A stretch of DNA of 64,000 nucleotides, taken from Lysobacter sp. GTDB taxonomy: Bacteria; Pseudomonadota; Gammaproteobacteria; Xanthomonadales; Xanthomonadaceae. Numbering within the stretch: position 1 is the first letter of the stretch; every line of letters begins with the position of its first letter. Where the stretch lies: NCBI GenBank assembly GCA_011526085.1, contig WYBC01000039.1, positions 62,001-126,000 on the forward strand. Direction: 5' to 3'. This document shows, in pieces, positions 2,144-61,880 of this stretch. A model generated the notes under the pieces. It made no database searches, was not told the origin of the DNA, and saw only the letters and a list, made by a program, of their open reading frames with translations. A program made the position numbers and the translations under genes.

Positions 2144-2566
2144 ATGGCCTTCAGTACCGGCAACGACAGCGGCGGCCCGATGTCCGAAATCAACGTCACG
2201 CCCCTCGTGGACGTGATGTTGGTGCTGCTGATCATCTTCATGATCACGGCACCGCTGATGTCGCACAAAACCAAGGTCGAACTGCCCGAAGCCAACTACG
2301 ACAAGCGGGAAGAAAAACCGCTCCAGGCGACCCCGATCACGATCGCGGTCACCGAGGAAGGCAAGTACTTCTACAACGACGAGCCGGTCACCCTCGACCT
2401 GCTCGGCAGCCGCTTCTCGACCCAGGCGCAGATGACTCCGCAGCCGCAGGTCAACGTCCGCGGCGACAAGGCCACGCCTTATCGCTACGTGAAACAGGCG
2501 GTCGATCTCGCCCAGGCCAACGGCATGCGCAAGGTCGGTTTCGTGGCCACCCGCGAACGCAACTGA
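2144..2566 (+). CDS. exbD: ExbD, biopolymer transport protein (copy 1)
   Basis: This 140-residue partner of ExbB has the standard layout: a short cytoplasmic tail ending [20 protein letters not shown], with the proton-carrying aspartate in the membrane segment (PLVDVML). A periplasmic domain with the ExbD/TolR fold follows, ending in a KQAVDLAQANGMRKVGFV-type strand. A GGAG ribosome site precedes the ATG. This is the first of three exbD paralogues in a row. All three keep the essential aspartate, so all look functional. Confidence 0.92.
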   Translation: MAFSTGNDSGGPMSEINVTPLVDVMLVLLIIFMITAPLMSHKTKVELPEANYDKREEKPLQATPITIAVTEEGKYFYNDEPVTLDLLGSRFSTQAQMTPQPQVNVRGDKATPYRYVKQAVDLAQANGMRKVGFVATRERN

Positions 2567-11931: not shown

Positions 11932-12503
11932 GCGCGCCTCCAGTCCATCCGCCAGGTGTCCTGCCAGGTCTTGCCGTCGTCGTACGACAGCGCCTGCGAC
12001 CAGCGGCAGGAAGTCGGCGTGATCCGGTCCCACAGGCCGCGGACCTTGATCGGCTTGTCGCCGTCCATGTCGTCGGCGACGAACACGCCGGCGCCGTCGA
12101 TGAAATGCCCGGGCATGCCCGGCGCGGCGAGGACGCCGGACTTCGCGTTCACCCAGAAATCCGACCACACGCGTTTCTCGACATCCAGCAGGCGCAGGCC
12201 CATGCCGCTGAAATTCCGTGCCGGGATGCGCAGCTCTTCGACGCTGCCGATGCCGCCGAGAAGGGTCCAGCAGGTCGCTTCGCCCTCGAAGACGTCCCAG
12301 TCGTCGCTGCCGGGCGTCTTCAGCCTGCGGTGGCGGATCTTCCATTCGCCGGCGAGGAAATCGAAGTCGCCGGGCTTGCCGGGGGGCGGCGCCACGGCGT
12401 CGGTTGCCGTGGCAGTGCCCACGCCGGCGACGGAGACGGCGAGTCCAGCGGCGGCGGACAGGAGCAGGGTGCGGCGTGCGGGATCGTCGGGGGTCCGGGT
12501 CAT
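11928..12503 (-). CDS. DUF1579-like exported protein with Tat-type signal
   Basis: This 191-residue protein starts with a twin-arginine style leader (DDPARRTLLLSAAAGLAVSVAGVG). The mature part, FDFLAGEWKIRHRRLKTPGSDDW through ALSYDDGKTWQDTWRMDW, resembles the downstream cytosolic paralogue. It is therefore probably exported folded through the TatABC system encoded in this same window. It is divergent from a YafY/WYL regulator at 12626, whose palindromic site lies between them, so it is the likely regulated target. Confidence 0.7.
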   Translation of the reverse strand: MTRTPDDPARRTLLLSAAAGLAVSVAGVGTATATDAVAPPPGKPGDFDFLAGEWKIRHRRLKTPGSDDWDVFEGEATCWTLLGGIGSVEELRIPARNFSGMGLRLLDVEKRVWSDFWVNAKSGVLAAPGMPGHFIDGAGVFVADDMDGDKPIKVRGLWDRITPTSCRWSQALSYDDGKTWQDTWRMDWRRA

Positions 12504-12550
12504 GGCGGGTGCCAGTCAGTAGGAGAGTGCGACCACCGTACGCGGCGATA

Positions 12551-12569
12551 CCTGACATATACCGTCAGG
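12551..12569. promoter_or_regulatory. Palindromic operator candidate for the YafY/WYL regulator
   Basis: The perfect inverted repeat CCTGAC-N7-GTCAGG lies midway between the divergent DUF1579-like gene (start 12503) and the regulator gene (start 12626). Its AT-rich spacer (ATATACC) stands out from the GC-rich surroundings. This is the expected place for an autoregulatory and target operator. Confidence 0.55.
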
Positions 12570-12625
12570 AATAGACTGCGATCCTGTGGACCCATCCCGG
12601 ACGTCTTCCTCCGCCGGACGAACCC

Positions 12626-13618
12626 GTGCGCACCAGTCGACTGTTGTCCCTCCTGATCCTGCTGCAACTGCGCGGCGGCGCGACTGCCGACGCCCTTGCC
12701 CGCGAGTTCGAGGTTTCGGTGCGCACGATCTATCGCGACATCGACCGGCTCGCCGCGGCCGGGGTGCCGGTCTATGCCGACCGCGGACCCGGTGGCGGTT
12801 TCCGGCTGCTCGACGGGTATCGCACCCGGCTCACCGGTCTGGCCACCGACGAAGCCGAAGCGCTGTGCCTGATCGGCATGCCCGGCCCGGCGCAGGCGCT
12901 GGGCATGGGCGAGGCCGCGAGCGCGGCCGCGCACAAGATGATGGCGTCGTTGCCCGATGCCGGCGGCGCGCTGGCGGTGCGCATGCGCGAGCGCTTCCAT
13001 CTCGATCCGGTCGACTGGTATCGCGAGGACGACACGCCGGCGGTGCTGCGTCCGATCGCGCGGGCGGTGCTCGATCGCACCGAACTGGAGATGCGCTACG
13101 ACAGCTGGACCGGCGTGCGCGATTGGGTGGTGCGGCCGCTCGGGCTGGTGCTGAAGGCGGGCCAGTGGTACCTGGTCGCCGAAGGCCACGGCAAGCCGCG
13201 GATCTTCAAGGTCGCGAACATCCGCCATCACCTCGCGACCGATCGGGTGTTCGAACGGCCGCCGGCCTTCGATCTCGCCGCTTGGTGGGCGACGGAGACC
13301 GCACGCTTCGAGGCGCAGTTGCGCGGCGATACCGCGACGCTGCGGGTCACCGCCACCGGGCTGGCGCGGATCGCGGCGCTCGGCGCGTATGCGAAGACCG
13401 CGGCGCAGGCCGCCATCCCGGATGCCGACGGCTGGTCGCGGATGACGCTGCCGATCGAGAACATCGAACAGGCCGCGCTGCTGTTGCTCGGCATCGGTCC
13501 GGAACTGCGGGTGCTGGCGCCCGAGGCGTTGCGGCTGCGGTTGCGGCAGATGGCCGAAGCCGTGATCGCGAGCTGCGATGGCACGCGCAGTGCTCAGACA
13601 CCATCCGCGATGGCATGA
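12626..13618 (+). CDS. YafY-family WYL-domain transcriptional regulator
   Basis: This 330-residue DNA-binding protein has a DeoR-like winged helix-turn-helix in residues 1-55 (LADALAREFEVSVRTIYRDIDRLAAAGVPVY-type). The central and C-terminal part carries the WYL ligand-sensing fold (VRPLGLVLKAGQWYLVAEGHGKPRIFKVANI). Such proteins sense nucleic acid fragments or small ligands. The start is a GTG at 12626 that yields the standard MRTSRLLSLLILLQ N-terminus. It is divergent from two paralogous genes and likely controls them and itself through the palindrome at 12551. Confidence 0.88.
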   Translation: MRTSRLLSLLILLQLRGGATADALAREFEVSVRTIYRDIDRLAAAGVPVYADRGPGGGFRLLDGYRTRLTGLATDEAEALCLIGMPGPAQALGMGEAASAAAHKMMASLPDAGGALAVRMRERFHLDPVDWYREDDTPAVLRPIARAVLDRTELEMRYDSWTGVRDWVVRPLGLVLKAGQWYLVAEGHGKPRIFKVANIRHHLATDRVFERPPAFDLAAWWATETARFEAQLRGDTATLRVTATGLARIAALGAYAKTAAQAAIPDADGWSRMTLPIENIEQAALLLLGIGPELRVLAPEALRLRLRQMAEAVIASCDGTRSAQTPSAMA

Positions 13619-13649
13619 TTCGCGGCGATCACACGACAGAAACCGCGCG

Positions 13650-14138
13650 ATGCGCATGCATTTGCTGATCCTGGCCGGGTTGTGCGCACTGGGCGTCGCG
13701 CCGGGCGCGCAGGCGCAGCTGCGGCCGCTGATGAACGGCGAGATCAACACCCGTCTGTCCTGCGACCAGCAGGAAACCGCGTTGATCGGCATGTACGTCC
13801 ACGCCCGTGACCGGGGAACGCCGAAGGCGGACATGGTCGCGAAGGCGGCGGCGTTGCCGGAGAACGACGGCACGCGGATGGTCGCGCTGTCGCGCATCGA
13901 CGATGTCTACCTCGACCCGCGGCTGACGGCCGCCACGCTGGTCGCGTACCGGTCGAAGAAATGCCAGATCGGTGTGTCGTGGCGCGATGAACCCCATGAG
14001 GCCGAAGCCTACGAACGCGAGCACCTGCTGCAGTGCCAGGCGCTTGGCCTGCCCGGCGATCGCGATTTTCGACGCTGCATCCACGACCTGCTGGAAACGC
14101 TGGAGGAACGCCGGACGCGGCCGGCGGCCGAACGCTGA
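13650..14138 (+). CDS. Small exported protein, unknown function
   Basis: This 162-residue protein has a signal peptide (MRMHLLILAGLCALGVAPGAQAQ, cleavage after AQA). The mature domain is helical and contains three cysteines (LSCDQQ, KKCQIG, LQCQAL) plus one near the end (RRCIHD), which could form two disulfides in the periplasm. The ATG at 13650 begins the signal peptide, and another six bases later is equally possible. It follows the YafY gene by 31 bases and might be read from the same transcript. No family recognised. Confidence 0.65.
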   Translation: MRMHLLILAGLCALGVAPGAQAQLRPLMNGEINTRLSCDQQETALIGMYVHARDRGTPKADMVAKAAALPENDGTRMVALSRIDDVYLDPRLTAATLVAYRSKKCQIGVSWRDEPHEAEAYEREHLLQCQALGLPGDRDFRRCIHDLLETLEERRTRPAAER

Positions 14139-14234
14139 CCGACGGCGATCGCGGGCTTCGACCTTGGTCGGAGCCCTGCGCCCGGCCGTCCGCTCGCCGT
14201 ACACTCGCCGGACCGTGATTCCGCCGAGACGCGC

Positions 14235-17200
14235 ATGATCCCAGGCTGGGTGCTGTTGCTGGTATCGCTGGGCTACGTGGGCGTGCTGTTCGCGGTCGCC
14301 TATCTAGGCGACGTGCGCGGCATGCGGCCGCGCTGGCGCTGGCTGCGGCCGATGGTCTACTCGCTGGCGCTCGCGGTTTACTGTTCCTCGTGGACGTTCT
14401 ACGGTGCGGTCGGCACCGCGGCACGCACCGGGCTGGGCTTCCTGCCGATCTATCTCGGCCCGCTGCTGATGCTGCTGTTCGGCTGGCGCATCCTTGAACG
14501 TCTCGTGCTGATCTCCGGCGAGCATCGCATCGTCTCGATCGCCGATTTCCTGTCCTCGCGCTACGGCCGCGCGCCTGGACTCGCGGCGCTGGTCGCCGCG
14601 GTCGCGCTGGTCGCCGCGGTGCCCTACGTCGCGCTGCAGTTCAAGGCGGTGGCGATGAGCGTGGAGGTGCTGGCGCCGGGCAGCGACGACGCCCTGTTCG
14701 CCGATCCCGCGCTGTACGTCGCATTGCTGCTCGCGGTGTTCGCGATCCTGTTCGGCACGCGCCAGATCGACGCCACTGAACACCATCGCGGCATGGTGCT
14801 CGCGGTCGCGCTGGAATCGCTGGTGAAACTGCTGGCGTTTATCGCCATCGGCGTGTTCGCGCTGCTGCACCTGCCCGGCACCGGCGGCCTGACCGAACGC
14901 ATCGCGCAGGCGACCGATGTCGTCACCGCGCCCGGCGTGCCCACCGGTTTCGTCGCGCAGACGCTGATCGCCTTCGCCGCGATCGTCTGCCTGCCGCGGC
15001 AGTTCCACGTGGCGGTGGTCGAATGCCAGGACCCGGCCGACCTCCGGCCCGCGCGCTGGCTGTTCGGCGGCTATCTCGTGCTCTTCAGCCTGTTCGTCGT
15101 GCCGATCACGCTTGCCGGACAGGCGCTGCTGGCCGGCAGCGGCGCATCGCCCGACACCTACGTGCTGGCATTGCCGCTGGCGCTCGATCGGGAAACCCTG
15201 GCGCTGACGGCCTACATCGGCGGATTCTCCGCCGCCACCGGCATGGTCATCGTCGCCAGCGTCGCGCTGTCCACGATGGTCAGCAACGACCTGGTGATGC
15301 CGCTGCTGCTGCGCAATCGCGCGCTGGTGGCCAGCGGCGGCATCGATCGCCAGGTGCTGTGGGTGCGGCGCATCACCATTCTCGCGCTGGCGCTGATGGC
15401 CTATGGCTACCACCGCATGGCCGCCGCCGCCGGCGATAGCCTCGCGCAGCACGGCCTGCTCGCGTTCGCCGCGGTGGCGCAGTTCGCGCCCGCGCTGATC
15501 GGCGGGCTGTACTGGCGCGGCGCGAGCCGTGCCGGTGCCTTCGCCGGCGTGTTCGCCGGCGCCATGCTGTGGGCCTACACGTTGCTGTTGCCGGCGCTGG
15601 TGCAGAGCAGCGCCTCCGGCGCCGACTGGATCGCGCACGGCCTGTTCGGATTCTCGTGGCTGCGGCCGCAGCAGCTGTTCGGCGTCACCGGCTGGGACCC
15701 GCTGACCCACGGCGTGTTCTGGTCGTTGTTGTTCAACATCGGCGCGCTGTTCCTGGTGTCCGCGCGGCGACGTCCGCTGCTGCAGGAACAACTGCTCGCC
15801 GCGACCTATCTCGATCCCTACGCACAGCGCTCGCCGCTCGGGCCCGGCGGCTGGGCCGGCACCGTGCGCAGCGGCGAACTGCTGGCGCTGGCCGAACGCA
15901 TCGTCGGCGAACGCCATGCCCGCCGCGCGTTCGCGGAGTACGCCGAATCCACCACGCGTCGACAGTGGCAGCCGCAACAGCTCGCCGACCGCGCGCTGGT
16001 GCAGTTCACCGAACGCCTGCTCGCCTCGGCCATCGGTGCGGCATCGGCGCGGCTCACGCTCACCAGCGCGCTGCGCGGTTCGGGCATGGAACTGGGCGAG
16101 GTGGTATCGCTGCTCGACGAAGCCAGCCAGGAACTGCGCTTCAATCGCCAGGTGCTGTCGACCACGCTGGAGAACATCAGCCAGGGCGTGAGCGTGGTCG
16201 ACCCGGAGCTGCGATTGATCGCGTGGAACCGCCGCTATCAGGACATGCTCGGGTATCCCGACGGCATGCTCTACGTCGGCCGCCCGATCGCCGACCTGAT
16301 CCGCTGGAGCGCGGAACGCGCCGAGATGAACGAGCTTGGCCCGCAGGCCGCCGGGCCGGGCGTCGGCGATGCGGAAGACACGCTCGAGAACACCGCGGAA
16401 AACACCGTTGAAAACACCGTGGAAAACCAGGTCCGTCGTCGGCTCGCGCATCTGCGCGCCGGACAGGCCTATGTGTTCCAGCGCCTGCGCGCCAACGGTC
16501 AGGTCATCGAGATGCGCGGCCAACCGTTGCCGGGCGGTGGTTACGTCACCAGCTTCAGCGACATCACCGATTACAAACGCGCGGAACAGGCGCTGCGCGA
16601 GATCAACGAAACCCTGGAACACCGGGTCGAACTGCGCACGCGCGAAGCCGAAGCGGCGCAGCAATCGAAGACGCGCTTCCTCGCCGCGGTGAGCCACGAC
16701 GTGCTGCAGCCGCTGAACGCCGCGCGCCTGTTCGCGTCCGCGCTGCGCGAGACCGAGGACGGCGACGAGCGCGCGCGCCTGGCCGAACGCGTCGACACCG
16801 CGCTGCGCGCCGCCGAGGATCTGCTCGACGGCCTGCTCGACGTGTCGCGCCTCGATGCCGGCGCGCTGCAGCCGGAGCTGTCGCATTTCGAGGCGGCCGA
16901 GCTGCTGCAGGAACTCGCCGCGCAGTACGCACCCAGCGCCGCCGGCCGCGGCCTCGCGCTGCGCGTGCATGCGCGGCCGGGCCTGTTCGTGCGCAGCGAC
17001 CGGCGCCTGCTGCGGCGCGCGCTGCAGAACTTCCTCGCCAACGCGCTGCGCTACACCCGCGAAGGCGGCGTGCTGCTTGCGCTGCGCATGCGCGGGGATG
17101 CGCTGGAACTGCAGGTCTGGGACACCGGCCCCGGCATTCCGGAGCATCATCTGGGCCAGATTTTCGACGAATTCCGTCGTTTCGATATTCCCAGCACCCG

Positions 17201-17768
17201 TCCCGACATCGGCGGCGAACGCGGCCTCGGCCTCGGCCTGTCGATCTGCCAGCGCATCGCCCGCATTCTCGGCCATCCGCTGCAGGTGCATTCCCGTGTC
17301 GGCAGCGGCAGCGTGTTCTCGATCCGCGTGCCGGTCGCCGCGGAGATGCCCGCGCGCGCGCCCGTGGCCACGCCGACGCTCGCGCCGGACGCGCTCGCCG
17401 GGCTGCGCGTGCTGTGCGTCGACAACGATCCGGAAATCCTCGACGGCATGCGCGCGCTGCTCTCGCGCTGGGGCGCGGTCGCGCTCACCGCCGCGACCGT
17501 CGACGAAGCCCTGGCCCACATCGCTCCCGATGATGCGTCGACGCTGCCCGATGTCGCGCTCGTCGACTACCACCTGCACGATCGGCTCGACGGTCTCGGC
17601 GTGATCGCCGAACTCCGGCGTCGCGCGAAACGCGACCTCCCCGCCGCGCTGCTCACCGGCGACGGCAGCGACACGCTCAAGCACGCGGCGCGCGAATACG
17701 GCTGCGCGGTGTTGACCAAGCCGGTGAAGCCGGCATCGCTGCGCGCGTGGCTGGCGGCGCGGGGGTGA
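14235..17768 (+). CDS. crbS: CrbS-like hybrid sensor kinase with sodium-solute-symporter domain
   Basis: This 1177-residue membrane sensor has residues ~1-520 forming a sodium/solute symporter (SSF) bundle of about 13 helices. A linker and PAS domain (about 640-775, VSVVDPELRLIAWNRRYQDML) come next, then a HisKA domain with His821 (AAVSHDVLQPLNA). A GHKL ATPase with DTGPGIP and GLGLGLSI follows, and a receiver domain has Asp1111 (ALVDYHL). This architecture matches CrbS of Vibrio and Pseudomonas, which with CrbR turns on acetyl-CoA synthetase (the acetate switch). acs and a LuxR-type regulator lie close by, supporting that role. The last 44 codons are duplicated at 18601-18732. A run of 12-base repeats lies in the PAS loop. 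Confidence 0.85.
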   Translation: MIPGWVLLLVSLGYVGVLFAVAYLGDVRGMRPRWRWLRPMVYSLALAVYCSSWTFYGAVGTAARTGLGFLPIYLGPLLMLLFGWRILERLVLISGEHRIVSIADFLSSRYGRAPGLAALVAAVALVAAVPYVALQFKAVAMSVEVLAPGSDDALFADPALYVALLLAVFAILFGTRQIDATEHHRGMVLAVALESLVKLLAFIAIGVFALLHLPGTGGLTERIAQATDVVTAPGVPTGFVAQTLIAFAAIVCLPRQFHVAVVECQDPADLRPARWLFGGYLVLFSLFVVPITLAGQALLAGSGASPDTYVLALPLALDRETLALTAYIGGFSAATGMVIVASVALSTMVSNDLVMPLLLRNRALVASGGIDRQVLWVRRITILALALMAYGYHRMAAAAGDSLAQHGLLAFAAVAQFAPALIGGLYWRGASRAGAFAGVFAGAMLWAYTLLLPALVQSSASGADWIAHGLFGFSWLRPQQLFGVTGWDPLTHGVFWSLLFNIGALFLVSARRRPLLQEQLLAATYLDPYAQRSPLGPGGWAGTVRSGELLALAERIVGERHARRAFAEYAESTTRRQWQPQQLADRALVQFTERLLASAIGAASARLTLTSALRGSGMELGEVVSLLDEASQELRFNRQVLSTTLENISQGVSVVDPELRLIAWNRRYQDMLGYPDGMLYVGRPIADLIRWSAERAEMNELGPQAAGPGVGDAEDTLENTAENTVENTVENQVRRRLAHLRAGQAYVFQRLRANGQVIEMRGQPLPGGGYVTSFSDITDYKRAEQALREINETLEHRVELRTREAEAAQQSKTRFLAAVSHDVLQPLNAARLFASALRETEDGDERARLAERVDTALRAAEDLLDGLLDVSRLDAGALQPELSHFEAAELLQELAAQYAPSAAGRGLALRVHARPGLFVRSDRRLLRRALQNFLANALRYTREGGVLLALRMRGDALELQVWDTGPGIPEHHLGQIFDEFRRFDIPSTRPDIGGERGLGLGLSICQRIARILGHPLQVHSRVGSGSVFSIRVPVAAEMPARAPVATPTLAPDALAGLRVLCVDNDPEILDGMRALLSRWGAVALTAATVDEALAHIAPDDASTLPDVALVDYHLHDRLDGLGVIAELRRRAKRDLPAALLTGDGSDTLKHAAREYGCAVLTKPVKPASLRAWLAARG
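16386..16430 (+). repeat. In-frame 12-base tandem repeats in the sensor PAS region
   Basis: Units GAGAACACCGCG, GAAAACACCGTT, GAAAACACCGTG and a partial GAAAACCAG follow each other and encode the acidic string ENTAENTVENTVEN. Because the unit is a multiple of three, slippage would change loop length without breaking the frame. Confidence 0.8.
17625..17756 (+). repeat. Copy A of a 132-base direct repeat (native crbS 3' end)
   Basis: This segment encodes the last part of the receiver domain (AKRDLPAALLTGDGSDTLKH onward to RAWLA). It recurs at 18601-18732 in the same orientation with 125 of 132 bases identical. All seven differences are silent, so the 44 residues are the same in both copies. 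Confidence 0.95.
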
Positions 17769-17869
17769 TGTGCGGAATGACGCCGCGTTGACCCCATGCC
17801 CCGTGGAATCCACACTTCAAGGTCTGCGGCGTGCGCATGGCGTGCCGCGACACCATCGCCGGAGGTCGC

Positions 17870-18343
17870 ATGAAGTTGCAGATGTTCGCCATCCTGATCC
17901 TGTTGTCGTGGTCTGCCGCAGCGCAGGATCCGCAGCTCGCGCCGAACGCGCCGCAGGACAAACCGATCACCGCCCATTCGAACGAACTGGCCGCCTTCGA
18001 AGCCGCGATCGCGCCCTACGTCGCGGAAGCGAAGCGCACCTATCCCGAAGCGAAGAAGAAATTCCTCGCCGGTCTGCCGGAAGGACAATCGTTCTTCGTC
18101 ACGACGCGGCTGCATGATGGCAGCGGCGCATTCGAGCAGGTCTTCATCGCCGTCCGCAGCATCGACGGTGGCGTGGTCCACGGCAAAATCTGGAGCGAGA
18201 TCAACACTGTCCGTGGATATCGGTTCGGCGATGAATACCGGTTCGCGGAATCCGGACTGCTTGACTGGCTGATCACCCATCCGGACGGATCCGAAGAAGG
18301 CAATGTCGTCGGCAAGTTCCTGGATACCTACGGTCGACGTTGA
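17870..18343 (+). CDS. DUF2314-like exported protein
   Basis: This 157-residue protein has a signal peptide (MKLQMFAILILLSWSAAAQ). A C-terminal domain resembles DUF2314/YegJ: GLPEGQSFFVTTRLHDG, a central FEQVFIAVRSIDGGVVHGKIWSEI, and a GNVVGKFLD ending. The start at 17870 has GGAGG 4-9 bases upstream. The family has no known activity. It sits between the two copies of the crbS 3' end, so it belongs to the inserted or rearranged patch. A 95-base gap separates it from the next gene. Confidence 0.65.
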   Translation: MKLQMFAILILLSWSAAAQDPQLAPNAPQDKPITAHSNELAAFEAAIAPYVAEAKRTYPEAKKKFLAGLPEGQSFFVTTRLHDGSGAFEQVFIAVRSIDGGVVHGKIWSEINTVRGYRFGDEYRFAESGLLDWLITHPDGSEEGNVVGKFLDTYGRR

Positions 18344-18438
18344 AGGCACGGCGGTCATCGGGAAGGTTCCGACATGCCAACCTTCACGCAATTCGCCCAA
18401 TCCCCGATATGCCGCCGCGCTTCCCGGAGGAGCGGTCC

Positions 18439-18747
18439 ATGTTCGTGATCACCCGCGAGATCATCGACAAATCGGTCCAGGCGCAACCGCTCTGCGCCGA
18501 GGAACCGTTCCTGTCCGGCGACGAGGCGGCGGTGGCCGGATTCTACAAGCGCATGTTCGCGGCCCTGCCCCGCGACGGCGTGGATGTCCTGATCGAAGCC
18601 GCGAAGCGCGATCTGCCCGCCGCCCTGCTCACCGGCGACGGCAGCGACACCCTCAAGCACGCGGCGCGCGAATACGGCTGCGCGGTGTTGACCAAACCGG
18701 TGAAACCGGCATCGCTGCGCGCGTGGCTGGCGGTGGGGCGCTGGTAA
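18439..18747 (+). CDS. Chimeric ORF: unknown N-terminus fused to crbS receiver tail
   Basis: This 102-residue frame starts at an ATG with GGAGGAG just upstream. The first 54 residues (MFVITREIIDKSVQAQPLCA onward to DGVDVLIEA) are not recognisable. The remaining 44 are identical to the end of the CrbS receiver domain, and four codons differ at the very end. The receiver part lacks the phospho-accepting aspartate and keeps only the lysine-containing output half, so it cannot be phosphorylated normally. It may be a rearrangement product rather than a working gene, although the reading frame and ribosome site are intact. Confidence 0.5.
   Translation: MFVITREIIDKSVQAQPLCAEEPFLSGDEAAVAGFYKRMFAALPRDGVDVLIEAAKRDLPAALLTGDGSDTLKHAAREYGCAVLTKPVKPASLRAWLAVGRW
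18601..18732 (+). repeat. Copy B of the 132-base direct repeat
   Basis: This second copy of the crbS 3' end is 94.7% identical to 17625-17756. Only synonymous positions differ, as if it derived from an allele of a related strain rather than from a recent local copy. The AT-rich FRG gene begins 56 bases further on. Confidence 0.95.
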
Positions 18748-18788
18748 GATAAAATCTGAACTACATGCAATTACAAGGAGGGAAATTC

Positions 18789-19715
18789 ATGCAGCCATTT
18801 TTTCCAAGAAAAACAGATAAAAAAGACAATCGCTTTAGAGTTGATTTGAGTGAAATAAATACATCTTATGCAAAAAACATTACTCACCAGCAAGCCAATT
18901 TGATCGAAGGTAAATTTTGTCCTTATATAGAAACATCTTCTATACAGGCATTTACGCAAGCCGTTGGATATTTTAAATTTAAATACAAAGACCATTTCAC
19001 GATTTTATACCGCGGACAAAGAATTGATTATGGAAGTCTTGTTCCTTCTATTTTTAGAGGCGTTTCAACAGAATCCGCAATTCAGGCTAGAAACAAGTCA
19101 ATTGATGACCTGCTTCTAGCTGTTGGTCATAACAAGTTGTTTATTGATGGCGTGCCTGATTATGCAATGGAACCCATATTGCAACACTACGGAATAAATA
19201 CGAGGTGGCTTGATTTAGTTGACAATCATTGGATTGCATTATGGTTTTCATTGCATAAGTTTCTTGAAACAAAAGATGGAATGAATGTGCATTGCGAGGC
19301 AAGAAATATAGATGACGATGACGGGTTCGCATACATAGTTCTCGTTGCTGCCCCCAGGTTGTGGGGAAATATACGGAAACCGGGACTTTTTGAAGATACG
19401 GATGCCACTTTAGTGGACTTGAGAATTTGTGCGCCGAGCATTTATTTAAGGCCGCATAGCCAGCATGCGTACTTAATGCGAAGATCTTCTGTCTATAAGG
19501 GAGAGCAAGCAGATCTTCGAAACCGTGTTGTCGGGATTGTCAGAATTCCTATTAGTGCGGGGAGAACATGGCTTGGTGTCGGTGGACTGATCAGTGCAAA
19601 CACTCTTTTTCCACCTCCTTATTACGATAGTGGCTATCATAGACTCTTGGACAAGCGGCCGCAGATCACTAGAGAGCTTTCTACGATCAAATACTTTTAT
19701 CCTTCAAACGACTGA
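18789..19715 (+). CDS. FRG-domain protein in an AT-rich island
   Basis: This 308-residue soluble protein carries the FRG domain: FTILYRGQRIDYGSLVPSIFR (Tyr74-Arg75-Gly76) and LQHYGINTRWLDLVDNHW, which matches the family pattern QHYG.PTRLLD. The biochemical role of FRG is not settled; such genes often occur singly in accessory and defence-like islands. The ATG at 18789 is chosen over 18765 because AAGGAGG lies 7 bases ahead of it. Base composition drops sharply at about 18750 and recovers near 19790, and codon use is unlike all neighbours, so transfer from a low-GC source is likely. It sits directly behind the repeated crbS fragment. There is no obvious partner gene. Confidence 0.85.
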   Translation: MQPFFPRKTDKKDNRFRVDLSEINTSYAKNITHQQANLIEGKFCPYIETSSIQAFTQAVGYFKFKYKDHFTILYRGQRIDYGSLVPSIFRGVSTESAIQARNKSIDDLLLAVGHNKLFIDGVPDYAMEPILQHYGINTRWLDLVDNHWIALWFSLHKFLETKDGMNVHCEARNIDDDDGFAYIVLVAAPRLWGNIRKPGLFEDTDATLVDLRICAPSIYLRPHSQHAYLMRRSSVYKGEQADLRNRVVGIVRIPISAGRTWLGVGGLISANTLFPPPYYDSGYHRLLDKRPQITRELSTIKYFYPSND

Positions 19716-19808
19716 TTTCAATTGTTTTTAAAAAAATAGCAGTAATAATTTGAAATTATGACGAAGAAATGCCAATGAATAATTTTGAGCTAAATGTTCT
19801 GGCGCAAG

Positions 19809-19994
19809 ATGAATGACACCGCGTTCGTGCAATGCCCGTACTGCGGCGAAGAGGTCGAGATCGTCGTCGACGGTTCGGTCGAGCATCAGCAGTACGTTGA
19901 GGATTGCAGCGTCTGCTGCCGTCCGATCGTGTTCACCGTGGTTGCCGAGGACGGCGAAGTGCTGAGCGTCGACGCGCGCTCCGAAGACGAATAG
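19809..19994 (+). CDS. CPXCG-motif cysteine-rich small protein
   Basis: This 61-residue protein has two zinc-knuckle pairs, CPYCG (Cys9, Cys12) and CSVCC (Cys33, Cys36), plus an acidic tail. It fits the CPXCG family of short zinc-binding proteins found across gammaproteobacteria; the function is unknown. I start at the ATG at 19809 (MNDTAFVQ), since the five codons upstream do not fit the family. No good ribosome site is visible. Its native upstream region may have been replaced, because AT-rich island sequence runs right up to it. Confidence 0.75.
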   Translation: MNDTAFVQCPYCGEEVEIVVDGSVEHQQYVEDCSVCCRPIVFTVVAEDGEVLSVDARSEDE

Positions 19995-20082
19995 ACCGCG
20001 GTCCTGGCGGCGGAGACCGTCCTGTTCGCCTCTCGTGCCGTTGCAGACGGACGACATCGAGCCCGCATCGAGCCGGAAAATA

Positions 20083-20189
20083 CCCCTGTAGGAGCGACGC
20101 AAGTCGCGACAGCTTGCAGGCTTTCAACAGCCGAATGGCGGGTCAAGATTTTCCGTAGACCGTCGCGACTTGCGTCGCTCCCACAGGGG
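20083..20189. repeat. Paired GTAG-type REP hairpins (head-to-head)
   Basis: Two 28-base arms, 20083-20110 and 20162-20189, are inverted copies differing at one base. Each contains its own small hairpin (GCGAC-GCAA-GTCGC) preceded by GTAGGA or a GTGGGA variant, the pattern of GTAG-headed REP elements in Stenotrophomonas and Xanthomonas. The pair lies in the 252-base gap between the CPXCG gene and the crbR-like gene, with nothing else recognisable there. It may also end transcripts from both sides. Confidence 0.85.
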
Positions 20190-20246
20190 CTGCGGTGACA
20201 GATCAGGCCGCTTTAGCGATGCCATCCGAACATTTCGAACGGGCGC

Positions 20247-20924
20247 TCAGTCCTCTTCCGGCGGCGGCATCACCGCTTCGGGATCGATCGCGAGCTTGCC
20301 GGCGATCAGCACCGCCTGGGTGCGGTTGTTGGCGCCGAGCTTGCGCAGGATCGCGGTCATGTGCGCCTTGATCGTGGCTTCGGACACCCCGAGCTCGTAG
20401 GCGATCTGCTTGTTGAGCAGGCCGTCGCCCAGCATCTGCAGCACGCGGAACTGCTGCGGCGTGAGTTCGCGCACGCGCTGCGCGGCGTCGTGTTCGTCCG
20501 CGGCGGCGGCCGGTGCCTTCAGCGCGGCGGCCGGTGCCCAGCGATCGCCGGCGAGCACGGTGTCGATGGCTTCGCCCAGGGTGGTCGCGTCGGCGGATTT
20601 CGGCAGGAAACCGACCGCGCCGTGATCCAGCGCGCGGCGCATGACCGCCGGCTCCTCGCGCGCCGAGACCACCATCACCGGCAACTGCGGGAAATGCGCG
20701 CGCAGGTGCACCAGCGCGCTGAACCCGTGCGCGCCCGGCATGTTCAGATCGAGCAGCAGCAGATCGGCATCGGGTTCGCGTTCGACCAGCGCGTACAGCG
20801 CGTCGACGCTGTCGGCCTCGCGCAGTTGCGCATGGGGCAGCGCCCGCGCCACCGCATTGCGCAGGGCCTCGCGGAACAGCGGGTGGTCGTCGGCGACAAG
20901 AATGGTGGGCATGGGGTGCGGCAT
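20247..20924 (-). CDS. crbR: CrbR-like LuxR-family response regulator
   Basis: This 225-residue regulator has an N-terminal receiver domain with the acidic pair ADDHP and phospho-acceptor Asp59 (LLLLDLN), then VSARE and LPKSA. A LuxR-type helix-turn-helix follows at about 160-215 (LTPQQFRVLQMLGDGLLNKQIAYELGVSEATIKAHM). In other gammaproteobacteria CrbR activates acs when CrbS signals. Here it is the gene directly downstream of acs on the same strand, and the kinase lies 2.5 kb away across an accessory patch. The ATG at 20924 is preferred, and 20912 (MPTILVADD) is possible. Confidence 0.82.
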   Translation of the reverse strand: MPHPMPTILVADDHPLFREALRNAVARALPHAQLREADSVDALYALVEREPDADLLLLDLNMPGAHGFSALVHLRAHFPQLPVMVVSAREEPAVMRRALDHGAVGFLPKSADATTLGEAIDTVLAGDRWAPAAALKAPAAAADEHDAAQRVRELTPQQFRVLQMLGDGLLNKQIAYELGVSEATIKAHMTAILRKLGANNRTQAVLIAGKLAIDPEAVMPPPEED

Positions 20925-21000
20925 CGCGATGGCGGCACCCCCAAGGTAACGCAGACCGGCGGTGGTCACCAATGGCCTCCGCCGGTCATGGCCGCCCCGC

Positions 21001-22962
21001 TCACTTCACCAACCGTTCCTCGACCAGCGATTTGACCACCGAGGGGTCCGCGAGGGTCGAGGTGTCGCCGAGCTGATCGGGCGCGTTTTCGGCGATCTTG
21101 CGCAGGATGCGGCGCATGATCTTGCCCGATCGCGTCTTCGGCAGGCCGGGCGCCCACTGCACGAAATCCGGCGTGGCGATCGGGCCGATCTCCTTGCGCA
21201 CGTGCGCGACCAGCACCTTGCGCAGATCCTCGGTCGGGGTTTCGCCGGCCACCAGGGTGACGTAGGCGTAGATGCCCTGGCCCTTGATGTCGTGGTTGAA
21301 GCCGACCACCGCCGCCTCCGCGACCAGCGGATGCGAAACCAGCGCGCTCTCCACTTCGGCGGTGCCGATGCGGTGGCCACTGACGTTGATCACGTCGTCG
21401 ACGCGACCGGTGATCCAGTAGTAGCCGTCGGCATCGCGGCGGCAGCCGTCGCCGGTGAAGTACATGCCCGGATAGGTCTTGAAATAGGTGTCGATGAAGC
21501 GCGGGTGGTCGCCGTAGACCGTGCGCATCTGCCCGGGCCAGGAGTCCAGCAGCACGAGATTGCCTTCGGTCGCGCCTTCGAGCAGGCCGCCGTTGGCATC
21601 GACCAGCGCCGGCTGCACGCCGAAGAACGGCTTGCTGGCCGAACCGGGTTTGAGGTCGGTCGCCCCGGGCAGGGGCGAGATCAAGACGCCGCCGGTTTCG
21701 GTCTGCCACCAGGTGTCGACGATCGGGCAACGGCCCTCGCCGACCACGTCGTAGTACCAGCGCCAGGCTTCGGGATTGATCGGTTCGCCGACGGTGCCGA
21801 GCAGGCGGATCGATTGTCGCGAAGTCTTCTTCACCGGCGCTTCGCCTTCGCGCATCAGCGCGCGGATCGCGGTCGGCGCGGTGTAGAAGATGGTGACCTG
21901 ATGTTTGTCGACGACGTCCCAGAAGCGCGAGACCGTCGGGTAGTTGGGCACGCCCTCGAACACGACGGCGGTGGCGCCGTTGGCCAGCGGCCCGTAGGCG
22001 ATATAGCTGTGGCCGGTGACCCAGCCGACATCGGCGGTGCACCAGTAGATGTCGTCCTCGCGCAGATCGAACACCGATTCGTGGGTGTAGCTCGCCCACA
22101 CCAGATAGCCGCCGGTAGTGTGCAGCACGCCCTTGGGTTTGCCGGTGCTGCCGGAGGTGTAGAGGATGAACAGCGGATCTTCGGCGTTCATACGCTCGGG
22201 TTCGCATTCGGTCGGCTGGCTGTCGACCACCGCGTCGTACCAGCGGTCGCGTGGCATCTGCATGCCGACCGCGCCGCCGGTGTGGCGGATCACCAGCACC
22301 GTTTCCACCGAGTCGGTGCCGGGCATCTTCAGCGCGGCGTTGACGTTCTCCTTCAGCGGCACCGACTTGCCGCCGCGCAAGCCTTCGTCCGCGGTGATGA
22401 CGAGCTTGCTGCCGCAATCGGCGATGCGGTCGGCGATGGACTGCGGCGAGAAACCGCCGAACACCACCGAGTGGATCGCGCCGACGCGCGCGCAGGCCTG
22501 CATCGCGACGACCGCATCGGGAATCATCGGCAGATAGATGGTGACGCGGTCGCCCTTCTTCACGCCGAGATGACGCAGCGCATTGGCCAGTTTGCACACG
22601 CGCTCGTACAGTTCGCGATAACTGATCCGCTGCGAAGGCGTGGCCGGATCGTCGGGTTCGAAGATCAGCGCGGTCTTGTCGCCGCGGGTCGCGAGGTGGC
22701 GATCGAGGCAGTTCACGCTGGCGTTGAGTTCGCCGTCTTCGAACCAGCGGATGTGGAAGTCCTCGACGTGGTAGCTCACGTCCTTGATCTTCGTCGGCGC
22801 CTTGAACCAGTCCAGACGCTGCGCGATGCGGCCCCAGTAGGCCTCGGGATCGGCGACGGCGGCGGCGTAGTCGCGTTCGTAGTCTTCGCGTCGGATGCGC
22901 GCGCGCGCCGCGAAATCGGCGGGCACGGGATAGACGGACGGGGCGGTGTCGGTCTGCGACAT
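21001..22962 (-). CDS. acs: Acetyl-CoA synthetase
   Basis: This 653-residue cytosolic enzyme makes acetyl-CoA from acetate, ATP and CoA through acetyl-AMP. It has the AMP-binding signature [19 protein letters not shown], the WWQTETGG motif, and [17 protein letters not shown]. The C-terminal SGKIMRR carries Lys614, the residue that is reversibly acetylated to switch the enzyme off. The length is normal. It is upstream of crbR on the same strand and divergent from the porin and transporter genes. The 208-base intergenic region 22963-23170 therefore holds promoters for both directions and is the likely CrbR target. Confidence 0.97.
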
Positions 22963-23170
22963 GAGGGCTTCCTCCGCGGGATGACGGGACGAGTCTGCGC
23001 ACAGTGTGCCGCAATCGCGTCGTTTTGCGCTGCAACATCGCGCTTAGACCATGGTCGCAAAAACCGCCGTATCCCGCGTTCCTTCGACCAATGGCGAATA
23101 GGCGATGCGGTCGAGCACGCACAGTCTGCGCTCACCGTGCATCCGCATGCGCCCTCGGGAGGGGCTCACC

Positions 23171-24559
23171 ATGAATCATCGACTGCATTGCAGACGGCCG
23201 CTGACATTGTCGCTGCTGGTCTGTCTGCTGGCGCCGGGCCTCGCGCTCGCGCAAAGCGCCACGCCGAAGGAACAGCAACTGGAGGCGCGCGTCGCCGAGC
23301 TGGAGAAAATCGTCCAGCAGCTGATCGCGCAACAACAGCAGACCGAAACCACCGTCAGTCAGGTGCAGGCGGCGCAGACCGCAGCGCCCGCGGCCAAACC
23401 CGCCGACGACGGCAAGCCGAAGATCCAGTCCACGCCGATCCTCACCGCCGCCAATCCGGGCACCGCGTTCTCGTACGGCGGTTTCATCAAGCTCGACGCG
23501 ATGGTCACCGACACCAGCGACGGTCGCATCGCCGACGGTTCCGCCGGTCGCCTGTTCTATCTGCCGTCCGCGATTCCGGTCGGCCCCGCCGGCGCCGATG
23601 GCGGCGACGCCTACGCCGATTATCACGCGCAGTTCTCGCGCTTCTGGTTCAGCGCCGATCACACCACCGGCGACGGCGACAAGATCAAGGGCTATATCGA
23701 AGCCGACATGTTCGGCGGCGGCAGCAACGCGCTGGTCGGCAACGAAACCGCGACCAACACCTATGCGGTCTCGCTGCGCCAGGCCTACGTCAGCCTGACC
23801 CGTCCCAACGGCGCGCAATGGCTGGCCGGCCAGACCTGGTCGAACTTCATGGACGTCGCCGCGCTGCCCGACAGCGTCGACTTCGTCGGACCGACCGAAA
23901 GCACCGTGTTCGTGCGCCAGGCGCAGGTGCGCTACACCAAGGGCCCGTGGTCGTTCTCGGTGGAAAATCCGCAGACCACGGTCACGCCGTTCCTCGGCGG
24001 CGCCACGCGCGCGAATTCGGGCGACAACGTGCTGCCCGATGTCACCGCGCGCTGGCAGAAGAAGGGCGATTGGGGCCATTTCAGCGTCGCCGGCCTGCTC
24101 CGCCAGTTCAAGCGTCTCGACGAAACCACCAGCGGCGCGTCGGTCAGCGTGTCGGGCAAATTCAATCTCGGCGCCAGCGACGATCTGCGCTACGCGGTCA
24201 ACGCCGGCCAGGGCATCGGCCGCTACATGGGCTTCGGCCTCGGCGCCGACACCGTGGCCGACGCCGGCGGCGATCTGGAAGCGATCGACGGCTACGGCGC
24301 GTTCGTCTCCTGGCGCCATGCGTTCTCGCCGAAACTGCGCGGCAACCTGTTCTACTCGACCGCGCACTTCGACAACGACACCGCGCTCACCGGCTTCGCC
24401 GCCACCGAGAGCGCGCAGTCGTTCCACGCCAACCTGATCTATTCGCCGCTGCCCAAGCTCGATGTCGGCGCCGAACTGATCTGGGGCCAGCGTTCGCTCG
24501 AGAACGACCTCGAAGGCGATCTCCGCCGCATCCACACCCACGTCAAGTACAGCTTCTGA
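23171..24559 (+). CDS. DcaP-family trimeric outer-membrane porin
   Basis: This 462-residue protein has a signal peptide (LTLSLLVCLLAPGLALAQS). A coiled-coil segment (EQQLEARVAELEKIVQQLIA, about 30-65) is typical of DcaP, followed by a beta-barrel beginning SYGGFIKLDAMVTDTS. The chain ends with the aromatic residue expected for outer-membrane proteins (VKYSF). DcaP porins admit dicarboxylates and other anions. The start at 23171 has a GGGAGGGG site. Divergent from acs and followed by an MHS transporter after 46 bases, it is likely part of the carboxylate uptake route. Confidence 0.85.
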   Translation: MNHRLHCRRPLTLSLLVCLLAPGLALAQSATPKEQQLEARVAELEKIVQQLIAQQQQTETTVSQVQAAQTAAPAAKPADDGKPKIQSTPILTAANPGTAFSYGGFIKLDAMVTDTSDGRIADGSAGRLFYLPSAIPVGPAGADGGDAYADYHAQFSRFWFSADHTTGDGDKIKGYIEADMFGGGSNALVGNETATNTYAVSLRQAYVSLTRPNGAQWLAGQTWSNFMDVAALPDSVDFVGPTESTVFVRQAQVRYTKGPWSFSVENPQTTVTPFLGGATRANSGDNVLPDVTARWQKKGDWGHFSVAGLLRQFKRLDETTSGASVSVSGKFNLGASDDLRYAVNAGQGIGRYMGFGLGADTVADAGGDLEAIDGYGAFVSWRHAFSPKLRGNLFYSTAHFDNDTALTGFAATESAQSFHANLIYSPLPKLDVGAELIWGQRSLENDLEGDLRRIHTHVKYSF

Positions 24560-31259: not shown

Positions 31260-31292
31260 TCGGGTTTGCCGCGCCGATGTCGCGTATCGCAC

Positions 31293-31372
31293 GTAGGAGG
31301 GCCTTCAGGCCCGAGCCTTTTCCGAACGATCGCCGCGATTACTGGAAAGCTCGGGCCTGAAGGCCCTCCTAC
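31293..31372. repeat. Head-to-head pair of GTAG-type REP elements
   Basis: Two perfect 24-base inverted copies, 31293-31316 and 31349-31372, each begin with GTAGGAG and contain GGGCCT-TC-AGGCCC. The pair lies between the convergent alpha/beta-hydrolase and YgjP-type genes and may form a large cruciform that stops transcription. The unit differs by a single base from the element at 26270-26293. Confidence 0.92.
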
Positions 31373-31405
31373 AGTGCCTGCATCACGCAGACCATCTACG
31401 CCGGT

Positions 31406-35304: not shown

Positions 35305-35407
35305 GCGACCGCGCCGGATCGTGCACGATGCATGATGACGCTTCGGGGATCGTGCGCGACGCACGGGGGCGGCCGGGCGTCCGCCTGAAAAACCAAGGAC
35401 TTGCGGC

Positions 35408-35422
35408 TGGCATGTGTCTTGC
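35408..35422 (+). promoter_or_regulatory. Sigma-54 (-24/-12) promoter candidate
   Basis: TGGCATG-N4-TTGC matches the consensus TGGCACG-N4-TTGC(A/T) at all positions but one, with GG and GC in the correct spacing. Transcription would start near 35434, 90 bases before the ATG of the sigma-54 activator gene at 35524. This suggests RpoN-dependent, possibly self-activated expression. Confidence 0.65.
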
Positions 35423-35523
35423 GCCGGCCTCTCAGCCATCCACGTCCACGCGGATCACGCCATGGCGGAAGTCCAGCGCGATCGCGTCGACCCTCGTCCT
35501 GCCCGCCCTCGAAGGATTCCCGC

Positions 35524-37002
35524 ATGCCCACCGATACCGTTGCCCGCACCGCCCGCCCGCGCCCGGTGTCCCCGATGGCCATCCTCGGCGCCGTCGGGCA
35601 TGCCTCGGGGGCCGTCGATATAGTGGGGTCCGCCCCGCAGCCCACGGAGCCCTCCCACGTGCCGAAGTCCGCAGCGAAGCCCGCCGGCCGCATCCTGGCC
35701 ATCGACGACGACACCCGCCTGCTCGAGAACTTCTCGCTCGCGCTGGCCCGCGACGGTTACAGCGTCGAGACCGCCGACAATCTCGCCGACGGCCTGCGCC
35801 TGGCCGCGACCCTGCCCTTCCAGGTCTGCCTGCTCGACCACAACATCGGTTACGACTCGGGCATCGAAGCGCTGCCGCGCTTCGCCGAACTCGCGCCGCA
35901 GATGCGGGTGGTGATGATCACCGCCAACAGCGGCGTCGAGGATGCGGTGAAGGCGATCGGGCTGGGCGCGGCCGATTATCTGGTGAAGCCCTGTTCCCCC
36001 GAGCAACTGCGGATCGCGGTCGCGCGCCAGATCGAGACCCGGCGCATGCTCGATCGTCTCGACACGCTGGAGCGCGAAGTCGGCGCCGCCCCGGAACTCG
36101 CCAGCCGCAATCCGGCGATGCAGGCCGCCATCGACATGGCGCTGCAGGTGGCGCGCACCGACGCCAATCTGCTGGTGCTGGGCGAAAGCGGTACCGGCAA
36201 GGGGGTGCTCGCCCGTGCGGTGCATCGCGCCAGTGCCCGCGCCGCCGCCGAATTCGTGACCGTCAACTGTCCGTCGCTGTCGGCGGAGCTGATGGAAAGC
36301 GAACTGTTCGGCCATTCCAAGGGCTCGTTCACCGGCGCGGTGCAGAGCACCGTCGGCCGCATCTCCCATGCCGACGGCGGCACCGTCTTCCTCGACGAGA
36401 TCGGCGATTTTCCGCTCTCGCTGCAGCCCAAGCTGCTGCGCTTCATCCAGGACAAGGAATACGAGCGCGTCGGCGATCCGGTCACGCGCAAGGCCGACGT
36501 GCGCATCGTCGCGGCCACCAATCGCGATCTCGAAACGATGGTGCGCGAGAACCAGTTCCGGCTCGACCTGCTCTATCGCCTCAACGTCATCAGCATCACC
36601 CTGCCGCCGCTGCGCGAGCGCCAGGAAGATCTCGAAGATCTCGCCAACGGCTTCATCCGCCGCTACGCCGCCGACTACGGCCTGCCGCCGCGGCGGCTGT
36701 CGGCATCGGCGCTGTCGAAGCTGCGCACCTATGCCTGGCCCGGCAACGTGCGCGAACTGCAGAACATGATGGAGCGCGCGGTGATCCTTGGCCGCGGCGA
36801 AGAGATCGGCCCCGATCTGCTCGCGCTCAACACCGCGATGCGCGCCGAAGCCCTGCCGGGCGCGCTGATCTCGCTGGAAGCGCTGGAAAAGCTGCACATC
36901 GAGCGCATCCTCGCCGCCAGCGACAGCCTGGACGCGGCGGCGCGCACGCTCGGCATCGATGCGTCCACCCTGTATCGCAAGCGCAAGCTCTACGGTTTCT
37001 GA
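35524..37002 (+). CDS. Sigma-54-dependent response regulator (NtrC/AlgB type)
   Basis: This 492-residue activator has a receiver domain (about 58-170) with phospho-acceptor Asp105 (CLLDHN) and LVKPCSP. The AAA+ domain has Walker A GESGTGKG (220-227), the sigma-54 loop in the form GSFTGA (267-272, usual form GAFTGA), and Walker B VFLDEIGDF. A Fis-type helix-turn-helix follows at the C-terminus (LDAAARTLGIDASTLYRKRKLYGF). The start at 35524 has AAGGA 8 bases before it. It is followed by tspO and two sensor kinases, any of which may be its partner. Confidence 0.9.
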   Translation: MPTDTVARTARPRPVSPMAILGAVGHASGAVDIVGSAPQPTEPSHVPKSAAKPAGRILAIDDDTRLLENFSLALARDGYSVETADNLADGLRLAATLPFQVCLLDHNIGYDSGIEALPRFAELAPQMRVVMITANSGVEDAVKAIGLGAADYLVKPCSPEQLRIAVARQIETRRMLDRLDTLEREVGAAPELASRNPAMQAAIDMALQVARTDANLLVLGESGTGKGVLARAVHRASARAAAEFVTVNCPSLSAELMESELFGHSKGSFTGAVQSTVGRISHADGGTVFLDEIGDFPLSLQPKLLRFIQDKEYERVGDPVTRKADVRIVAATNRDLETMVRENQFRLDLLYRLNVISITLPPLRERQEDLEDLANGFIRRYAADYGLPPRRLSASALSKLRTYAWPGNVRELQNMMERAVILGRGEEIGPDLLALNTAMRAEALPGALISLEALEKLHIERILAASDSLDAAARTLGIDASTLYRKRKLYGF

Positions 37003-61585: not shown

Positions 61586-61787
61586 GGTGGGGCGACCATT
61601 CGTTTTGTAGGCGCTCATTCTGCACCGGTATTCCTGCATTTTACCGGGCGAAGTGCAGGATGCGGAAACGCGGGCCGATTGAGGAAATGGCGCCACCGCT
61701 GTTCGGCTCTTCGTTCGGCACGCCTTCGGCGAATGCGCGCACGCACCGTGCTTCCCGCTCCACGCAATTCCGCCTCAGGTGTGCTGT

Positions 61788-61880
61788 ATCCGCTCCAGCA
61801 TCTTCTGCGCGCGTCGCATGTCGGCGCCCTGCTTCGCGGCCTGACCCGCGGCTCTCGCCAGCAGACCGCCGCCCATCCGT
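61788..61880 (-). pseudogene. Relic copy of the Rhs pre-toxin segment
   Basis: These 93 bases match 63024-63116 inside the Rhs gene at 89 of 93 positions, in the same orientation. The conserved reading gives RMGGGLLARAAGQAAKQGAD followed by MRRAQKMLERI, then stops after HT. It is too short to be a working gene and is probably what was left when the Rhs tip was exchanged. The remaining gap 61586-61898 contains nothing else I can support. Confidence 0.8.

What the first reader, a model, noticed from the sequence alone, without database searches (positions are those of the whole stretch)
17625..18732. Second copy of the crbS 3' end with only silent differences
The final 44 codons of the CrbS-like sensor are repeated 976 bases downstream. 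All seven of 132 base differences are synonymous, so the copy behaves like a gene segment from a related strain, not like a decaying local duplicate. The copy is fused in frame to an unrelated 54-residue N-terminus with a good ribosome site. A DUF2314 gene lies between the copies and an AT-rich gene follows. This is the footprint expected when DNA integrates at a gene's 3' end and re-supplies it.
Basis: partly seen in the sequence, partly recalled or inferred. Interest (0 to 1): 0.7.

Follow-up and report, generated by a model that had tools for sequence, protein, structure and literature searches.

The report
Displaced crbS tail in cargo hotspot
A spare copy of the last 144 bases of the acetate-sensor gene crbS, sitting beside a foreign candidate anti-virus gene, is most likely the scar left when that gene was imported from a close relative together with the end of the relative's crbS, at a spot where these bacteria repeatedly swap such genes.

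Summary
A 144-bp repeat (17624-17767 / 18600-18743) lies 976 bp apart; all 7 differences in 132 coding bases are synonymous (about 1e-4 for random point changes), and none of nine congener tails is as close (95% versus at most 89%). The 54-residue leader found no relative in the collections searched. The crbS-crbR gap is a cargo hotspot: 6 to 8,890 bp in 104 loci, with empty states. In the genus of the window DNA similarity ends within 31 bp of the crbS stop in 44 of 45 genome pairs, and behind it lie differing genes, some of them candidate defence genes (FRG here, PtuA-like AAA, DUF4917/PDC-S21). Second tails occur independently in Xanthomonas chitinilytica (~307 bp) and, as a 42-bp remnant, in a congener. 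Their left ends all differ, no site-specific integrase was seen, and crbS is intact, so site-specific integration that re-supplies the gene is unlikely. Best explanation: cargo that lay directly after crbS in a related donor was imported with that donor's crbS tail by integrase-free recombination (homology at one end, illegitimate joining at the other), as proposed for T6SS immunity arrays and Rhs tips. New site, known kind.

The parts
14235..17768 (+). crbS-like hybrid sensor kinase, intact, 1177 aa
   Evidence: Pfam PAS_7, HisKA, HATPase_c, Response_reg. Named by architecture and by its neighbours crbR and acsA; Pfam listed no SSF (SLC5) match for its N-terminus.
17624..17767 (+). crbS 3' end, copy 1 (in the intact gene)
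17870..18343 (+). DUF2314-like gene with a signal-peptide-like start, between the two tails
   Evidence: Pfam 20 bits, below cut-off; matches in 8 of 395 family genomes including own, best relative 66%
18439..18600 (+). start of an orphan gene (54 codons), cut off by the junction and fused in frame to copy 2
   Evidence: only the own genome matches among 395 sampled family genomes and 369 sampled class genomes; no match in plasmids or phages
18600..18747 (+). second crbS tail with its own stop codon; AT-rich DNA begins right after the stop
   Evidence: GC 0.72 in the tail, 0.35 in the next 60 bp
18789..19715 (+). AT-rich FRG-domain gene, candidate anti-phage gene (PADLOC PDC-S15)
   Evidence: nearest of 395 sampled family genomes 38%
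19809..19994 (+). small CPXCG cysteine-rich gene, right-hand resident gene of the gap in part of the genus
   Evidence: Pfam PF14255 E 1.2e-19; found before crbR in 5 of the 9 fetched congener regions
20247..20924 (-). crbR response regulator, convergent right flank
   Evidence: Response_reg and GerE; name by context, start codon chosen by eye
21001..22962 (-). acsA (acetyl-CoA synthetase, name by context)
   Evidence: ORF; found after crbR in 7 of the 9 fetched congener regions

Best explanation
The gap between the convergent genes crbS and crbR is a cargo hotspot that works without a site-specific integrase. In a close relative the AT-rich FRG gene sat directly behind that relative's crbS. 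A fragment running from the last ~144 bp of that crbS through the FRG gene entered the ancestor of this strain and recombined. Most likely the right end joined through shared sequence near CPXCG/crbR, and the left end joined without extended homology inside a resident gene whose first 54 codons remain. The fused ORF is then a by-product, not a designed gene. Shown: two tails, silent divergence, foreign-looking FRG gene, empty and differently filled sites in relatives, second tails elsewhere with other left ends. Inferred: donor, entry route, direction of import.
For: Copies are 95% identical, none of nine congener tails exceeds 89% to either, all 7 differences silent. Gap length 6-8,890 bp in 104 loci, median 1,954. 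Among 10 genomes of the genus similarity leaves at -31 to +16 of the crbS stop in 44 of 45 pairs; the exception (G006/G004) leaves at +97/+95. G006 and G004 then hold different genes (PtuA-like AAA; DUF4917/PDC-S21), apart from one 63-bp shared stretch, and are alike again from +1963/+2146. Congener G007 has about 1.6 kb between two blocks that lie 244 bp apart in G003; this insert holds a 42-bp, 90% crbS tail remnant left of a 37% GC gene. In X. chitinilytica (L116) a ~307-bp crbS tail, 93.6%, sits between a truncated mntP and new cargo, while the two mntP copies differ at 3 of 465 positions, so one local duplication does not explain both repeats. No crbS tail in phage records or viral contigs; in plasmids one partial match, a kinase gene of Azospirillum. 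ComEC and DprA domains are present in the genome.
Against: No donor with crbS directly followed by this FRG gene was found; 5 of the 394 other sampled family genomes have any FRG match and none is close. FRG relatives (32-37%) lie on three plasmids and two viral contigs, so the gene itself may travel on mobile elements. The leader has no intact relative, so the junction cannot be compared with its parents. Second tails are rare (3 of 104 loci) and the enrichment over other genes is weak (p 0.026, or 0.11 without the window). The G007 remnant is short and flanked by REP-like palindromes. Transposase genes do occur in some Stenotrophomonas gaps. ComEC and DprA occur widely and do not prove competence. 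Which piece was imported is not settled for this window.
Confidence: 0.5

Rival explanations
1. Same kind of recombination, other direction: the imported piece was a donor crbS 3' end with the DUF2314 gene and the orphan gene, anchored by homology in crbS; copy 2 and FRG are the resident's old tail and cargo pushed downstream, as for displaced effector ends in T6SS arrays and Rhs tips.
For: This is the order proposed for Vibrio immunity arrays (PMC5361080, passages) and fits the Rhs tip copy in this same window. It leaves the same junction.
Against: In G007 the blocks on both sides of the insert are shared with G003 at similar identity (79.3 and 79.9%), so tail plus cargo looks like the inserted piece; in L116 near-identical mntP copies with diverged tails fit import of tail plus cargo.
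Confidence: 0.25
2. Local segmental duplication of the crbS end, followed by selection on the chimeric ORF, which works as a small partner of CrbS or CrbR.
For: In-frame fusion with a ribosome site, no amino-acid change in 44 codons.
Against: The tail copy in L116 has gaps of 2 and 4 bases that shift its frame in between and in G007 about 42 bp remain, so a coding role is not general; an in-frame fusion has a one-in-three chance; silent-only divergence is also expected between two functional crbS genes.
Confidence: 0.1
3. Site-specific integration of a genetic element at the crbS 3' end that re-supplies the end of the gene.
For: Tails run to or nearly to the stop codon, cargo starts close behind, cargo is AT-rich.
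Against: Three different left ends; no site-specific integrase among the window genes and 19 cargo proteins scanned; no mobile carrier of a crbS tail in phages or viral contigs; the G007 tail lies 2 kb away from crbS.
Confidence: 0.08

Closest known systems
Homology-facilitated illegitimate recombination, as proposed for Vibrio T6SS effector-immunity arrays (PMC5361080, PMC9711863; passages seen)
   Same: Imported module joined by homology at one end and without it at the other; a displaced gene 3' end is left as a footprint; old cargo is kept beside new.
   Different: The duplicated gene is a metabolic sensor kinase, not an effector; the cargo includes candidate anti-phage genes; here the tail seems to travel with the cargo.
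Hotspots without mobile elements, exchanged by recombination in flanking core genes (PMC5635113; passages seen)
   Same: Conserved flanks, very variable content, no site-specific integrase seen.
   Different: Read here from single-gene scars in species representatives, not from within-species recombination statistics.
Core defense hotspots of Pseudomonas aeruginosa, cDHS1/2 (PMC10250203; passages seen)
   Same: Fixed core flanks with changing defence genes.
   Different: Much smaller (at most 8.9 kb here), no tRNA or tmRNA within 12000-24000 of the window, flanks are the convergent pair crbS/crbR.
Rhs displaced tips (mentioned in PMC5361080 passages; otherwise recalled)
   Same: Gene 3' segment repeated downstream around AT-rich cargo; an example lies in this window at 61746-61880 / 62982-63116.
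   Different: Rhs tails belong to toxin genes; the crbS tail encodes the end of a receiver domain.

Membership tests
Integrase-mediated island at a gene's 3' end | Site-specific recombinase gene in or near the element | tested here: not met
   None among the window genes scanned or 19 cargo proteins of other loci; 189 candidate cargo ORFs exist in 89 loci, so most were not scanned. Transposases, not integrases, were found in Stenotrophomonas gaps: a Y1_Tnp protein (cluster in 7 loci) and an IS110-type one in L115
Integrase-mediated island at a gene's 3' end | Fixed crossover point in the target gene | tested here: not met
   Tail copies begin ~145, ~346 and ~43 bp before the crbS stop
Integrase-mediated island at a gene's 3' end | Mobile element carrying the gene end as att site | tested here: not met
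   No match in phages or viral contigs; one partial plasmid match to a kinase gene; metagenome contigs not searched
Homology-facilitated illegitimate recombination | Homologous segment accompanying foreign DNA at one end | tested here: met
   Second tail directly before the foreign-looking gene here, in L116 and (short) in G007
Homology-facilitated illegitimate recombination | Other junction without extended homology | tested here: inconclusive
   Junction at 18600 joins an orphan leader whose full parent is unknown
Core-gene-flanked hotspot without mobile elements | Conserved flanks, variable content, empty states | tested here: met
   104 loci, 6-8,890 bp; 45 genus pairs
Core-gene-flanked hotspot without mobile elements | Raised homologous recombination in the flanks | not tested
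   Needs many strains of one species
Defence hotspot | Recurrent defence genes in the gap | tested here: inconclusive
   Candidate defence hits for the window's FRG, one G006 and one G004 gene; 7 of the 10 congener proteins scanned had no PADLOC hit and one only a marginal one; in other genera recurrent residents such as mntP fill the gap
FRG-domain candidate defence protein (PDC-S15) | FRG domain | tested here: met
   PF08867 E 2.6e-9, above cut-off; PADLOC PDC-S15 best E 1.1e-13; no NCBIfam match; activity not testable here

The most novel reading that the evidence does not exclude
An integrase-free cassette array: cargo genes carry the tail of crbS as a portable homology arm, and every displaced tail becomes a new landing site, so candidate defence genes can be added one behind another next to a metabolic sensor gene instead of replacing each other.
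Probability: 0.22. Interest if true: 0.65.

Novelty: new member of a known kind. Interest (0 to 1): 0.42.

Why it matters
It names a small landing site for foreign genes, candidate defence genes among them, in Lysobacteraceae and shows how such genes may move without a site-specific integrase: the end of the neighbouring housekeeping gene comes along and leaves a readable scar. If tails act as landing sites, the route can be tested by transformation in a laboratory strain, and crbS-crbR gaps become a place to look for new defence genes.

Tried and rejected
Considered and rejected: a conserved chimeric gene family (leader found only in the own genome among the sampled genomes; none in plasmids or phages); a tRNA or known RNA as target; a phage or viral carrier of the tail; an integron cassette origin for the DUF2314 gene (a 64% relative in G047 lies among many 64-91-bp repeats like attC sites, but the window's intergenic stretches share only 21 nt with them at E 0.46). 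The ~58-68% self-matches of crbS ends in other gaps (plus strand: L034, L104, L200, L212) were not counted as tails, because the minus-strand control gave as many such matches (L075, L211, L212); a 32-bp minus-strand match in L230 was also left out. Polarity of import in the window could not be settled from 132 bp.

Second matches elsewhere: in the protein search of 395 family genomes I count 43 genomes besides the own with two or three matches to the crbS C-terminus. I re-searched 36 of these 43 to see positions: no second match lies near the first; they are on other contigs or at least 80 kb away, mostly long paralogous frames at lower identity, with one whole-gene duplicate (G164). The other 7 were not checked.

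Control for rarity: 658 long genes in the surveyed loci, 69 of them crbS; of the 589 others, 2 have a tail copy within 6 kb (a paralogue-like one in L054 at 71%, and mntP of L116 itself). 3 of 104 against 2 of 589 gives p 0.026; without the ascertained window 2 of 103 gives p 0.11. Thresholds differed between the two counts, and the crbS genes of the window and G007 are cut in their loci and so not among the 69. This enrichment is only suggestive.

Full report
WHAT IS THERE. The window holds, in order: a crbS-like sensor kinase (14235-17768), a DUF2314-like gene (17870-18343), an ORF of 102 codons (18439-18747) whose first 54 codons match nothing found and whose rest is a second crbS end, an AT-rich FRG-domain gene (18789-19715), a small CPXCG gene (19809-19994), then crbR and acsA on the other strand. 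The repeat is 144 nt at spacing 976. Its 132 aligned coding bases differ at 7 places, all silent; 27% of all point changes would be silent there, so chance is about 1e-4. The copies are 95% identical; the nine congener crbS ends compared are at most 89% identical to either. The second copy brings its own stop and C-terminus (LAVGRW), and GC falls from 0.72 in the tail to 0.35 in the 60 bp behind its stop.

THE SITE IN RELATIVES. I gathered 80 named loci, nine congener regions plus the own one, one more congener locus (G010, cut before the stop) and 60 further regions. After removal of repeats 123 distinct loci remained, 104 with crbR in reach. The gap between the two stop codons runs from 6 to 8,890 bp, median 1,954; it is 6-17 bp in seven loci. 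In Stenotrophomonas and other groups recurrent residents fill it, such as mntP (a cluster of 37 ORFs in 36 loci, its representative a Pfam Mntp match). Transposase genes also occur there: a Y1_Tnp type in a cluster of 7 loci and an IS110 type in L115. In the genus of the window the fillings differ strongly, with some blocks shared (G006/G004, G009/G001, G003/G007): in 44 of 45 genome pairs DNA similarity leaves between -31 and +16 of the crbS stop, and only G006/G004 share up to +97/+95. G006 and G004 then differ over about 1.9-2.1 kb (a PtuA/AriA-like AAA gene at 43% GC; a DUF4917 gene that matches PADLOC PDC-S21 at 8e-121), with one 63-bp stretch in common, and are alike again afterwards. 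G005 has an Rhs-repeat gene there. In G008 crbR was not found within the fetched region. Of 19 cargo proteins scanned with Pfam none is a site-specific integrase.

OTHER SECOND TAILS. Two further cases were found among the 104. In Xanthomonas chitinilytica H13-6 (L116) the order is crbS, truncated mntP, a ~307-bp crbS tail whose gaps of 2 and 4 bases shift the frame in between, unrelated cargo (AAA, beta-helix and biotinyl-lipoyl domains), complete mntP, crbR. The two mntP copies differ at 3 of 465 positions while the tails are 93.6% identical, so a single local duplication does not explain both. In congener G007 a 42-bp, 90% remnant of the crbS end lies about 2.1 kb downstream, just left of a 37% GC gene with weak nuclease matches; this stretch sits between two blocks that are only 244 bp apart in sister species G003. 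REP-like palindromes flank the G007 remnant, so I rate it as probable only. The three tails start about 145, 346 and 43 bp before the crbS stop.

MECHANISM. A site-specific integrase would cut at one place and would leave the restored gene end at the junction; neither is seen, crbS is intact, and no phage record or viral contig gave a crbS tail; the plasmid search gave one partial match to a kinase gene. Recombination with homology at one end and illegitimate joining at the other explains tails of varied length next to cargo. The abstract of PMC3240628 defines this process; passages of PMC5361080 and PMC9711863 propose it for effector-immunity modules in Vibrio, and the former describes a displaced effector 3' end. 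Passages of PMC5635113 describe hotspots without mobile elements that recombine in flanking core genes, with more hotspots in transformable species. The own genome has ComEC and DprA domains, which is compatible with uptake of DNA but no proof. G007 and L116 suggest that tail plus cargo is the imported piece; for the window this is by analogy.

CARGO. The FRG gene matches PF08867 (E 2.6e-9) and PADLOC's PDC-S15; PMC9503650 passages call Frg a member of the ADP-ribosyltransferase superfamily and a potential antiviral effector that might act as a NADase. Its relatives are distant: 37% on two Klebsiella plasmids and 32% on an Arthrobacter plasmid, 38% in one family genome, 32-33% in two viral contigs, none in the phage records. 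The leader of the chimera matched none of 394 other sampled family genomes, 368 other sampled class genomes, the plasmids or the phages, so the fused ORF is best read as a broken gene plus a tail.

IN PRINT. The titles listed by searches (20 of 29, 20 of 129, 3 of 3 and 12 of 15 papers) do not describe a crbS-crbR hotspot. The main text of a Stenotrophomonas defence-island study (PMC11680222) has no occurrence of 'acetyl' or 'histidine kinase' (passages seen); its table of flanking genes was not read.

VERDICT. It is the mark of imported DNA, but by recombination without a site-specific integrase rather than by an element that integrates at and repairs the gene end. The site is a new example of a known kind.

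Noticed in passing
window 61746-61880 and 62982-63116: 135-bp, 87% repeat: a part of the tip of an Rhs-type gene (62606-63964, minus; named by eye) is repeated downstream around AT-rich DNA (46% GC), like a displaced Rhs tip; same kind of scar as at crbS.
   Followed up: partly
window 2174-2262 and 2620-2708: Two neighbouring 85% alike stretches that read like paralogous ExbD/TolR genes (name recalled).
   Followed up: no
window ~20090-20200 and 31289-31377: Long imperfect palindromes containing GTAGGAG-like ends, REP-like repeats; one lies between CPXCG and crbR.
   Followed up: no
L140 (G047): A 64% relative of the DUF2314 gene lies in an array of small genes with many 64-91-bp, 89-100% repeats, looking like an integron cassette array.
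   Followed up: partly
L083 and L095, between mntP and crbR: The last ~47 bp of crbR are repeated once (L095) or twice (L083) beside other repeats in the gap, so the other flank also sheds tail copies.
   Followed up: partly
L035:2656-4311 and L036: G006 and G004 carry a lipoprotein-like gene and a DUF6973 gene with a weak XVIPCD match in the same gap, perhaps an antibacterial type IV effector-immunity pair.
   Followed up: no
L005/L034 (G008): In G008 crbS is followed by a sigma-54-type regulator whose relative (by eye) lies at 35401-37002 in the window, and crbR/acsA are not in the fetched region: a rearrangement.
   Followed up: no
L234: An FRG gene on a Klebsiella conjugative plasmid sits between partition genes and a Phd-type antitoxin gene.
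   Followed up: no
L068 and L069; G164: Two contigs of one Lysobacter chinensis assembly give the same crbS locus, and G164 shows the same, probably an assembly duplicate.
   Followed up: no
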